Positions 15,204-18,669 of a DNA stretch of 41,783 nt are shown here, one piece after another. The notes under the pieces were generated by a model. That model saw only the letters and a list, made by a program, of their open reading frames with translations, made no database searches and was not told the DNA's origin. Source of the DNA: Lactobacillaceae bacterium. Its GTDB lineage: Bacteria; Bacillota; Bacilli; Lactobacillales; Lactobacillaceae. The translations under genes and the position numbers were made by a program. The stretch lies in assembly GCA_031282325.1 (NCBI GenBank), contig JAITDY010000005.1:1-41783 (forward strand), written 5' to 3'. Positions within the stretch are counted from its first letter, which is position 1. Every line of letters begins with the position of its first letter.

Positions 15204-16394
15204 TTATTCGTTTTTAATTATTATCTTTCTATTTTTTGTAATAAAGATTGTTAAAAATGAAAATACAACATAAGAAATAATAGAAACCTGGGTAATTAAA
15301 GAAAGCGAAAAATGTTTGTTTAATTCAGCAAATAGCCATAAAAAGATAATGGAAACAATACTCGACATAGTTCCAGAAAAAGATATGATTGATCCTACAA
15401 TTGAGGTGTCTGATTTTTTATATATGTCCACCATTAATTGATGATAGTATAAATCAAAAGGAATTAAAAACAACAATATAAATAAAACAAATAAAAACTT
15501 ATTAGTCTCCGCTATATTAATTGCTCCAAAAAAGAGTGCTGACATTATCACTATTAATATTTCTCTTAGTTTTGAGATTTTAATGTGTTTAAAAATAAAA
15601 TTACTTACAAGTGAAACAAGTTGAAAACTAACATAAAAAATTCCAAATAATTTAGGTGGGAGAGCTGCGATTAAAAAAATAACTTGCCAAAATTGATAAA
15701 AAGTTTGTGCAATAAGCTGATAAATACTAATTAAAAATATGTCTGCATAAATACTACGATCTGCCACATTTTTTAATTTGGAAAATATATCTTTTAAATT
15801 AAGATTTTTATCAAAATTTTTTAATACTTTGTCACCATTTCTTTCTTTAAAAAAAAATAATGTAATAAAAAAAGAAATGAAAATTAAAAACGTAGAAATA
15901 AGATAAATTTTATTGCTACAATATGCATAAATAAAAGATCCAACTCCTCCAGCTATTAAAGCACTGTATAAATTAACATTATTTAGTGAGATGTTAAATA
16001 ATTTAATTTTATACTCGTTATTTTTATAAGATCTAATAAAATATGACTCCAACGATCCACTCATTGAAGCCGTGCTAATTCCATAAATAAACCATGATAT
16101 AGATAACATAATTACTGATTCAGAAATAAAAATTATAAAAAATGATATTACTAATAACAATAGGGAAACTAGATACATTCTTTTTTCAGACCAGATATCT
16201 GTTAATATTCCAGATGGGAATTCAAATAATAACATAGCTAACATATAAAAACTTTGAATAAATGCAATATCACTAATTGACATTCCTTTATTGATCAAAA
16301 TTATAGTGAGAATCGAGTGAGGAAGAGCTCTTGCAAAATTATACAAAAAATAACTAACGAAGTATATCTTGGATTGTGTTTTCATAAATTGCAA
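15204..16394 (-). CDS. MFS transporter (candidate exporter of the peptide product, MccC-like role)
   Basis: About 12 hydrophobic segments, MSISDIAFIQSFYMLAMLLFEFPSGILTDIWSEKRM MFS loop; last gene of the MccB-like operon. Confidence 0.85.
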   Translation of the reverse strand: MQFMKTQSKIYFVSYFLYNFARALPHSILTIILINKGMSISDIAFIQSFYMLAMLLFEFPSGILTDIWSEKRMYLVSLLLLVISFFIIFISESVIMLSISWFIYGISTASMSGSLESYFIRSYKNNEYKIKLFNISLNNVNLYSALIAGGVGSFIYAYCSNKIYLISTFLIFISFFITLFFFKERNGDKVLKNFDKNLNLKDIFSKLKNVADRSIYADIFLISIYQLIAQTFYQFWQVIFLIAALPPKLFGIFYVSFQLVSLVSNFIFKHIKISKLREILIVIMSALFFGAINIAETNKFLFVLFILLFLIPFDLYYHQLMVDIYKKSDTSIVGSIISFSGTMSSIVSIIFLWLFAELNKHFSLSLITQVSIISYVVFSFLTIFITKNRKIIIKNE

Positions 16395-16396
16395 AA

Positions 16397-17356
16397 TTAA
16401 TACTCCTTCACCTCATTGATTTGTGTTTCCGTATATAACTGTATGGTTTCGTCATAATTTAATTTAAGTGATTTTTTAGCAGATCCCCAAAAATCAATAA
16501 AATCAATTAGCTTATCTGGATAATATCTATCATTATATGTTTCATCTAGAAAACTTATTATTGAATCAAATCTATTTTCTTCATCAGACAATTGAAAATA
16601 ATCAATATAATATTCATATATTGATTTCAATGCATCTAATTTTGGTTCATTAATTTTTAAAAAATTAAATCGTCTTTTAAATGCCTTGTCTTTAAGTAAA
16701 ATATTAACTTCGCTAGGAGTTGTTGCACCGATAATTTGTAAAGAACTATCTGTAATTATTGGTTTTAAAATATCTCCAGCTGATACACCTCCTTCTGTGT
16801 TTCCCAGATTTAATAAATTGTGTATTTCATCAAAAAATAATATTTCGCTGTTTATTTTGGAACTCTCAATAAGTTCATTTAATCTATTTTCAAATTCTCC
16901 GCGATATTTAGTATTAGCTACTAATTCACTTATTGAAATTATTTTAAAGGATTTTTTATAATTGTGTAAATAGTTATTAATTAATGATGTTTTTCCTACA
17001 CCAGGTTCTCCCACAAGAATTACATTATTTTTATACTCACGATTTAAATATAAGTGAATCATTTGTATTTCTTTTTCCCGTTCAACTAATAATTTTTTAT
17101 TCAAAAAATTATTAGTATAAATGTCATTCTTATCAACTTGAATATCTGCTATATATTTTTGCATATCAGATTCTAAATTTTGTAAAAATATAAAAACATC
17201 TAGATTTGAAGCATTTGGTTCCTTTATTTTATATTCTACAATTTTTCGATCTAAATACGGCGAATCGACAATATATGTCATTGGAATTTTACCCTGCAAG
17301 GATTTTATAATTTTACCTTCATTAATATCATTCATAAGAGATAAAAATATTTTCAT
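16397..17356 (-). CDS. Standalone Clp/Hsp100 D1-like AAA+ ATPase
   Basis: GEPGVGKTSLI (Walker A), NTKYRGEFENRL (D1 pore loop region), ILFFDEIHNLL (Walker B), IIGATTPSEV (sensor 1), FKRRF (Arg finger), RYYPDKLIDFIDFWGSA. Confidence 0.88.
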   Translation of the reverse strand: MKIFLSLMNDINEGKIIKSLQGKIPMTYIVDSPYLDRKIVEYKIKEPNASNLDVFIFLQNLESDMQKYIADIQVDKNDIYTNNFLNKKLLVEREKEIQMIHLYLNREYKNNVILVGEPGVGKTSLINNYLHNYKKSFKIISISELVANTKYRGEFENRLNELIESSKINSEILFFDEIHNLLNLGNTEGGVSAGDILKPIITDSSLQIIGATTPSEVNILLKDKAFKRRFNFLKINEPKLDALKSIYEYYIDYFQLSDEENRFDSIISFLDETYNDRYYPDKLIDFIDFWGSAKKSLKLNYDETIQLYTETQINEVKEY

Positions 17357-17379: not shown

Positions 17380-18135
17380 TTAACCTAAATTAATTTTTTG
17401 TAAATCCCAGTCAGAAGTATTTAAAATAATTTGACTTTCAATTACATCGGATTTTTGTTTTTTCCCAATAAATTTAATAATTTCTACTTCCATCATTTTT
17501 GCAGACAAGGAATTATCTGTATCTACAATTGCGGAAATATTATTATCATTTAACTTTTTAATTTCTAAATTATCATTTTTAATATAATCTTCAGGAAACA
17601 ATTCATTAAAAGAACGTGTTTTCCCAGGTATTAATAATGGGCCTAAATAAATCTTACCTTGCGCGTATGGACTACCATATAATATTGGAGTACTAGTTTT
17701 ATCACTATATTCAGCCATCAATCGATGTATTTGCCCAATTGGTTTATCTGCTGCAACAACAATTAAATTAAAATTAATATTCTGAAATTCTGTGAATAGT
17801 TGTTCAACATTTTCTATATTCTGATTATGCCCTACGATTAAAGAATCGGGTGCTACTTCTTTTAGGTTTTTAACAGCCACATCAATTTTACTTAATCCAA
17901 TATCTTTTTCACGGTATAAAACTTGGCGACTGGTATTGCTTAATTCAATATAATCAAAATCAATCAGATGTATTTCCCCAACTCCAATTTGAGCAAGCCC
18001 TAATGATAAATATGAACCTACTCCTCCCGCGCCTAAAAGTAAAATTTTAGTTTTTTGTAAATCTTCTTGTAATTTAATCGCATCCCTTAAATCATTACCC
18101 GGTAAAATTGCAAAAATTTTGAATCTGGCGATCAT
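17380..18135 (-). CDS. ThiF/MccB-like E1-type adenylating domain (C-terminal part of a split gene)
   Basis: KILLLGAGGVGSYLSLGLAQIGVGEIHLIDFDYIELSNTSRQVLYREKDIGLSKIDV...VVAADKP...GPLLIPGKT. Confidence 0.88.
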   Translation of the reverse strand: MIARFKIFAILPGNDLRDAIKLQEDLQKTKILLLGAGGVGSYLSLGLAQIGVGEIHLIDFDYIELSNTSRQVLYREKDIGLSKIDVAVKNLKEVAPDSLIVGHNQNIENVEQLFTEFQNINFNLIVVAADKPIGQIHRLMAEYSDKTSTPILYGSPYAQGKIYLGPLLIPGKTRSFNELFPEDYIKNDNLEIKKLNDNNISAIVDTDNSLSAKMMEVEIIKFIGKKQKSDVIESQIILNTSDWDLQKINLG

Positions 18136-18445
18136 ACTTTGACAATTGTTTGGTTGTTAATGATGTTTCAATTTTTGCAATATCAATATACTTTTTAATT
18201 ATATTATTTGTTAAAAGAAGTTCAATAAATTCTTTCGGGTCATCCAATTCGATACTTTGTTCCAATAACTTTTGAATCATTTCATCTTGCGTAATTGGAA
18301 TTTTAAATATAGTTAACACTGCTATAAAAAGATCTTTATCATTAACGCCGATCTCAACATTTTTTTCAAGTGGCAACGATATGTGTAAATTACCGTTGGG
18401 CATTTGAAATATATGTATGCTACTTATTATTTTATATTTATCCAT
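18095..18445 (-). CDS. N-terminal (peptide-clamp-like) part of the same MccB-like enzyme, separated by an apparent frameshift
   Basis: Ends in KYDRQIQNF, the start of the E1 RYxRQ motif, whose continuation lies in the next ORF; good SD (AAAAAAGGATAATTAAGATG). Confidence 0.7.
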   Translation of the reverse strand: MDKYKIISSIHIFQMPNGNLHISLPLEKNVEIGVNDKDLFIAVLTIFKIPITQDEMIQKLLEQSIELDDPKEFIELLLTNNIIKKYIDIAKIETSLTTKQLSKYDRQIQNFCNFTG

Positions 18446-18469: not shown

Positions 18470-18513
18470 TTGGAATTAGTAATCAATTTTTACGATTTGA
18501 TTACTAATTCCAA
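18470..18513 (-). promoter_or_regulatory. Perfect 17-bp stem hairpin between precursor peptide and MccB-like gene (attenuator or processing hairpin)
   Basis: TTGGAATTAGTAATCAA (18470-18486 / 18497-18513 complementary arms), 10-nt loop, TTTTATT follows on the minus strand. Confidence 0.8.
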
Positions 18514-18519
18514 AAAATT

Positions 18520-18618
18520 TTATGGATTGCTTCTTGCAAAACGAACTGCTGTATTTGATTTTGTAGATGCATTTTTTATGGTTATATTCTTAACCATTAT
18601 TTTAACGTTTGTTTTCAT
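18520..18618 (-). CDS. Putative RiPP / peptide-nucleotide precursor peptide, 32 aa
   Basis: Minus ATG...TAA: MKTNVKIMVKNITIKNASTKSNTAVRFARSNP; no acidic residues, +7 net basic; promoter-like TATAAT at 18664-18669; directly upstream of the MccB-like enzyme. Confidence 0.65.
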   Translation of the reverse strand: MKTNVKIMVKNITIKNASTKSNTAVRFARSNP

Positions 18619-18663
18619 TTAGTTTATCCATTCAATTATTTAAATAAATATTTAACAAGTTAA

Positions 18664-18669
18664 TTATAC
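18664..18669 (-). promoter_or_regulatory. Candidate -10 box for the peptide operon
   Basis: Perfect TATAAT on the minus strand 45 nt upstream of the peptide ATG; -35 not convincing. Confidence 0.45.

What the first reader, a model, noticed from the sequence alone, without database searches (positions are those of the whole stretch)
18520..18618. Uncalled 32-aa precursor peptide ending in ...FARSNP rather than a terminal Asn
Seen: minus-strand ATG-to-TAA ORF encoding MKTNVKIMVKNITIKNASTKSNTAVRFARSNP, placed between a TATAAT box and the MccB-like gene, with no acidic residues, seven K/R and five Asn. Established: characterised MccB enzymes modify the carboxylate of a C-terminal Asn; in the pantocin A pathway a ThiF-like enzyme acts on internal residues of a ~30-aa peptide. 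Inference: the penultimate Asn followed by Pro implies trimming of Pro, modification of a C-terminal Pro, or a different chemistry. The SD upstream of the ATG is weak, so expression is unproven.
Basis: partly seen in the sequence, partly recalled or inferred. Interest (0 to 1): 0.87.

Follow-up and report, generated by a model that had tools for sequence, protein, structure and literature searches.

The report
Peptide gene beside ThiF-like modifying enzyme
The small ORF is probably a real 32-residue precursor of a ribosomally made, enzyme-modified peptide in a rare cluster (ThiF-like enzyme, Clp-type ATPase, exporter) that also occurs in Exiguobacterium, Priestia and Pantoea; it is not microcin C, and its enzyme gene is broken in this assembly.

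Summary
The ORF is real as described (18520-18618, minus; 32 codons; no Asp/Glu; ends SNP). On its own it is unconvincing: an ORF this long arises in about 10% of shuffles, its codon usage is neutral and its Shine-Dalgarno is weak. Comparison changes that. The nearest relatives of the neighbouring RRE-ThiF enzyme sit in the same rare cluster (ThiF, single-ring ClpA-like AAA ATPase, MFS exporter) on plasmids of Exiguobacterium, Priestia and Pantoea. Each cluster has a short ORF in the precursor slot, of 32, 32 and 31 codons, followed by a hairpin, as here. A 31-32-codon ORF ending within 30 nt of the hairpin arises in 0.36% of shuffles. The peptides share length and place but no significant sequence identity. 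C-termini vary (SNP, VTP, AER, LAN), so the strict C-terminal Asn of microcin C is not met. The window and Priestia peptides have no acidic side chain, so the C-terminal Pro carboxylate is the only group a ThiF enzyme could adenylate. Best reading: a new variant of ThiF-type RiPP that modifies or cyclises a variable C-terminus. In this assembly the ThiF gene is frameshifted, so this copy may be dead or mis-sequenced.

The parts
18663..18668 (-). TATAAT, possible -10 element
   Evidence: read directly; no good -35 partner found, so weak
18520..18618 (-). candidate precursor peptide, 32 aa, MKTNVKIMVKNITIKNASTKSNTAVRFARSNP
   Evidence: ORF; same slot and length as ORFs in Exiguobacterium, Priestia and Pantoea; P=0.0036 for length and place
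18470..18513 (-). hairpin, terminator-like, between precursor and enzyme gene: 16-bp perfect stem then T-rich tail
   Evidence: fold -23 kcal/mol, z -6.7; hairpin in the same slot in Exiguobacterium, Priestia and Pantoea
18095..18445 (-). first fragment of the ThiF-like enzyme: N-terminal peptide-binding (RRE-type) domain
   Evidence: 29% identity to Exiguobacterium ThiF residues 19-114, E 4e-8; SD AAGGAT
17380..18135 (-). second fragment, adenylating ThiF domain, in another frame from the first
   Evidence: PF00899 E 3.8e-36; 37% identity over 98% to Exiguobacterium; catalytic Arg, Lys, Asp kept; no Zn CxxC
16397..17356 (-). single-ring ClpA-D1-like AAA ATPase
   Evidence: PF00004 E 2.2e-14, ClpA E 5.6e-43; 34.6% identity to the Exiguobacterium neighbour gene
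15204..16394 (-). MFS exporter (TTG start with AGGAG)
   Evidence: PF07690 E 3.9e-17; MFS gene in all three relative clusters

Best explanation
The ORF is the precursor gene of a ThiF-type RiPP cluster: precursor, hairpin terminator, RRE-ThiF adenylase, ClpA-D1-like AAA ATPase, MFS exporter. Shown: gene order, hairpin, domain content, and membership of the enzyme in a supported clade apart from MccB, with matching clusters in three genera. Inferred: the terminator favours short precursor transcripts, as in mcc; the N-terminal domain holds the basic leader; the ThiF domain adenylates the C-terminal carboxylate (Pro32, the only carboxylate in the peptide); an internal nucleophile or an outside amine then captures it, giving a cyclised or capped C-terminus; the AAA protein helps handle or resist the product; the MFS protein exports it. 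In this assembly the enzyme gene is split by a frame change near runs of A and T, so this copy is either a recent pseudogene or carries a sequencing error.
For: Same cluster type with a 31-32 aa ORF in the precursor slot in Exiguobacterium pE73 and Priestia (GGAGGTG SD) and Pantoea ananatis; hairpin after each; length and place P=0.0036; enzyme clade 98/95 support; R, K and D of the adenylation site invariant; closest solved structures are MccB and PaaA; the window and Priestia peptides have no D/E, so only the C-terminus can be activated; characterised ThiF RiPP enzymes adenylate a carboxylate, in EnfB and IndF the C-terminal one (PMC12250964, PMC12150305).
Against: Weak Shine-Dalgarno, neutral codon usage, no significant sequence similarity among the peptides, no close strain for a selection test, and a broken enzyme gene. 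G585, in the same enzyme clade, has a 26-aa peptide and no AAA gene. No nucleophile is conserved near the C-termini. The product chemistry is untested.
Confidence: 0.62

Rival explanations
1. Microcin C-type: Pro32 is trimmed, exposing Asn31, and the enzyme attaches a nucleotide through an N-P bond.
For: MccB is among the closest solved structures; a terminator sits between mccA and mccB in E. coli (PMC6495379); an MFS exporter is present; the review notes ClpA homologues in some McC clusters (PMC12250964); a sister relation of the clade to MccB is not rejected (p 0.47); the Pantoea peptide does end in Asn.
Against: All reported MccA end in Asn (PMC9239234, PMC6495379), while relatives here also end in VTP, AER and LKF; no peptidase gene in the window, Exiguobacterium, Priestia or Pantoea clusters; Zn CxxC pairs of MccB absent; the window enzyme grouped with MccB alone is rejected (p 0.007).
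Confidence: 0.12
2. The ORF is a chance reading frame in AT-rich DNA; the true precursor is elsewhere, for example the overlapping frame MHLQNQIQQFVLQEAIHKIFWN, which ends in Asn, or it has decayed along with the enzyme gene.
For: ORFs this long occur in 10% of shuffles; weak SD; codon usage neutral for both frames; enzyme gene broken.
Against: Length and place match three independent clusters, P=0.0036; the overlapping frame has no Shine-Dalgarno and its stop lies inside the terminator stem; no other ATG ORF over 9 aa ends upstream of the hairpin.
Confidence: 0.2
3. Pantocin-like internal modification of the peptide by the ThiF enzyme.
For: PaaA covers both domains of the profile (5ff5), and PaaP is also about 30 aa (PMC12250964).
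Against: PaaA acts on two adjacent Glu; the window and Priestia peptides have no Glu or Asp; no 2OG-Fe(II) oxygenase gene in the cluster.
Confidence: 0.04

Closest known systems
Enterofaecin (EnfB) and IndF-type ThiF RiPPs
   Same: RRE-ThiF enzyme adenylates the C-terminal carboxylate of a short precursor; internal capture; found in lactic acid bacteria and streptococci (PMC12250964, PMC12150305)
   Different: No WWIVI or NWYFI core and no Trp; no M16 peptidase; here an AAA ATPase; precursor ends in Pro and lacks acidic residues
Microcin C (mccABC)
   Same: Small precursor gene, terminator before mccB, RRE-ThiF enzyme, MFS exporter
   Different: No C-terminal Asn, 32 rather than 7 residues, no Zn CxxC, enzyme in a separate clade; weak SD
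Pantocin A (PaaP/PaaA)
   Same: About 30-residue precursor with an RRE-ThiF enzyme
   Different: No adjacent Glu pair, no oxygenase, MFS instead of EamA transporter
Exiguobacterium pE73 / Priestia / Pantoea ananatis plasmid clusters (unnamed)
   Same: RRE-ThiF of the same clade, AAA ATPase, MFS, 31-32 aa ORF, hairpin
   Different: Their ThiF genes are intact; the Bacillales ones have strong SDs; gene order differs in Priestia and Pantoea; extra methyltransferase in Exiguobacterium

Membership tests
ThiF-like adenylyltransferase RiPP (general) | RRE domain fused to a ThiF adenylation domain | tested here: inconclusive
   both domains are present and align to the intact Exiguobacterium ThiF, but they lie in two frames in this assembly
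ThiF-like adenylyltransferase RiPP (general) | short precursor gene and exporter beside the enzyme | tested here: met
ThiF-like adenylyltransferase RiPP (general) | catalytic Arg, Lys, Asp for ATP/Mg | tested here: met
   invariant R171, K184, D231 (Exiguobacterium numbering) present in window; roles from PMC12250964
ThiF-like adenylyltransferase RiPP (general) | ATP-dependent modification of the precursor | not testable with these tools
   needs an in vitro assay
Microcin C | C-terminal Asn on the precursor | tested here: not met
   ends SNP; relatives VTP, AER, LAN, LKF
Microcin C | strong Shine-Dalgarno at mccA | tested here: not met
   GGA only; criterion from PMC6495379
Microcin C | terminator between precursor and enzyme genes | tested here: met
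   hairpin with T-rich tail; termination itself not shown
Microcin C | enzyme falls with validated MccB | tested here: not met
   own clade 98/95; window+MccB rejected p 0.007; sister relation of whole clade to MccB not rejected p 0.47
Microcin C | two CxxC pairs found in E. coli and G037 MccB | tested here: not met
   0 CxxC in window, Exiguobacterium, Priestia, Pantoea; G585 has 2
Pantocin A | adjacent Glu-Glu in the core | tested here: not met
   no D/E in peptide
Pantocin A | 2OG-Fe(II) oxygenase partner | tested here: not met
   no such gene between rexA and purR
Indolylamide (IndF) / enterofaecin (EnfB) | aromatic C-terminal core NWYFI or WWIVI | tested here: not met
   core ends VRFARSNP, no Trp
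GRC thiolactone | C-terminal Cys with internal Glu, radical SAM partners | tested here: not met
   no Cys, Glu or radical SAM gene

The most novel reading that the evidence does not exclude
A previously undescribed ThiF RiPP subgroup in which a zinc-free RRE-ThiF enzyme, working with a single-ring Clp-type AAA ATPase, activates a variable C-terminal residue, here Pro, on a basic peptide of nearly fixed length (31-32 residues) and closes or caps it by new chemistry (for example attack of the preceding backbone amide to give an N-acyl diketopiperazine).
Probability: 0.3. Interest if true: 0.72.

Novelty: new variant of a known kind. Interest (0 to 1): 0.52.

Why it matters
Published mining for McC-like clusters required a strong ribosome site and a C-terminal Asn on the precursor (PMC6495379), so clusters like this would be passed over. 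If real, it adds a rare, horizontally scattered RiPP group with intact members in culturable Exiguobacterium and Priestia. It also makes directly testable what a ThiF enzyme does with a peptide whose only carboxylate is a C-terminal proline, and why a Clp-type ATPase travels with it.

Tried and rejected
Phage records: two unrelated ThiF pieces. The genome-contig scan gave only distant ThiF proteins, 13 of 14 from Campylobacterota. Family, class, phylum and order searches (about 1,900 genomes counted in all) found one more clade member, G585. Peptide-to-peptide similarity was not significant. Codon-usage test uninformative. Structure of the N-terminal fragment alone was low confidence (pLDDT 52), so no fold search was run. 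Considered and rejected: programmed -1 frameshift at A AAT TTT (the second ORF is in the +1 frame, so the direction is wrong); anti-phage reading (PADLOC hits are weak matches to generic E1 and AAA domains).

Full report
What was checked. The ORF is exactly as described. It lies in a 289-nt gap between rexA/addA and a broken ThiF-family gene, at 20% GC. Taken alone it is weak: a longest sense ORF of at least 32 aa appears in 10% of dinucleotide shuffles, codon usage gives P=0.18, and its Shine-Dalgarno is GGA with an 8-nt spacer while most neighbouring genes have longer matches. About nine bases after its stop begins a perfect 16-bp hairpin with a T-rich tail (z -6.7).

Surroundings. Downstream on the same strand are an N-terminal fragment of 116 codons (18445-18095), a ThiF domain of 251 codons in another frame (18135-17380; PF00899 E 3.8e-36), a ClpA-D1-like AAA ATPase, an MFS transporter, then purR and glmU. 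The frame change lies near runs of A and T between the two domains; no other gene in the 41.8-kb window looks split by a mechanical ORF list. The genome is a 65%-complete assembly. None of six congeners shows the cluster: none matches the intergenic DNA, only one gives any ThiF match, and that a distant one (G121, E 1.9e-11), and the region upstream of purR differs (in the nearest congener only about 590 bases upstream are on its contig). The cluster is therefore probably horizontally acquired.

Relatives. tblastn in plasmids found the same triad in Exiguobacterium alkaliphilum pE73 (ThiF 37%, AAA 35%), Priestia aryabhattai and Pantoea ananatis. The precursor slot holds MKTSNLVKVNVSAPVAVSAQTKIAAMAMAAER (32 aa), MKNSVKQGLQIKKAGAVHTGAMVSVTVNSVTP (32 aa) and MTVKVASRIKCNKVQTVTMANVKAVVESLAN (31 aa, ahead of MFS-AAA-ThiF in Pantoea). 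The first two follow GGAGGTG sites. All are followed by hairpins. G585 has a 26-aa peptide and a ThiF of the same clade but no AAA gene. The same scan recovers known precursors in control loci (MRTGNAN in E. coli; MHRIMKN in G037, which I recall as the Lactobacillus johnsonii precursor) and finds mostly 15-25 aa peptides in other ThiF clades. Given the family length and position, chance yields such an ORF in 0.36% of shuffles. The peptides themselves are not significantly similar in sequence, so their kinship is inferred from place, length and enzyme kinship, not shown.

Enzyme. The window, Exiguobacterium, Priestia, G585 and Pantoea enzymes form a clade (98/95). The window enzyme grouped with MccB alone is rejected (p 0.007); the whole clade as sister to MccB is not (p 0.47). 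The adenylation-site Arg, Lys and Asp are invariant. CxxC pairs are absent in four of five. Closest solved structures are MccB and PaaA.

Mechanism. Known ThiF RiPP enzymes adenylate a carboxylate, which is then captured by a nucleophile (PMC12150305, PMC12250964). The window and Priestia peptides contain no Asp or Glu, so the only candidate is the C-terminal Pro carboxylate; this is inference from composition. Relatives end in Arg, Pro, Asn and Phe, so neither Asn chemistry nor trimming to Asn explains the group. The hairpin resembles the terminator between mccA and mccB (PMC6495379). The AAA protein's role is unknown; the review groups ClpA homologues of McC clusters with self-protection (PMC12250964).

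Verdict. Probably a real precursor gene of a rare variant of ThiF-type RiPP. The copy in this assembly cannot be assumed functional, because its enzyme gene is frame-broken while intact copies exist in the relatives.

Noticed in passing
L052 (G000 contig C3) 920-3095: A second, intact ThiF plus MFS cluster in the same genome with upstream peptide MDFADLNGSNGHRVGGR; ThiF relatives in G140, G562 and G186 have peptides ending GFRVGSR, GHRVGGR and GWRWGKR, a separate ThiF-RiPP family with an Arg-rich C-terminus.
   Followed up: partly
L031, L037: Lactobacillaceae loci with tandem precursors ending NWFFI/NWYFI upstream of ThiF, like the indolylamide (IndA) family.
   Followed up: no
L129 upstream of 3977: Bacillus tropicus plasmid with two identical copies of MEKVKVKVNIKAEELTSSLGEPRA before a ThiF gene followed by a HEXXH protein gene.
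   Followed up: no
L126, L127: Pantoea piersonii and Salmonella plasmids carry similar 17-aa peptides (MKFTKFNASNATLAAVG, MKFTKHATSNAKLALVG) before ThiF and MFS genes.
   Followed up: no
window, minus strand, overlapping 18520-18618: An overlapping frame encodes MHLQNQIQQFVLQEAIHKIFWN, ending in Asn with its stop inside the terminator stem; no Shine-Dalgarno.
   Followed up: partly
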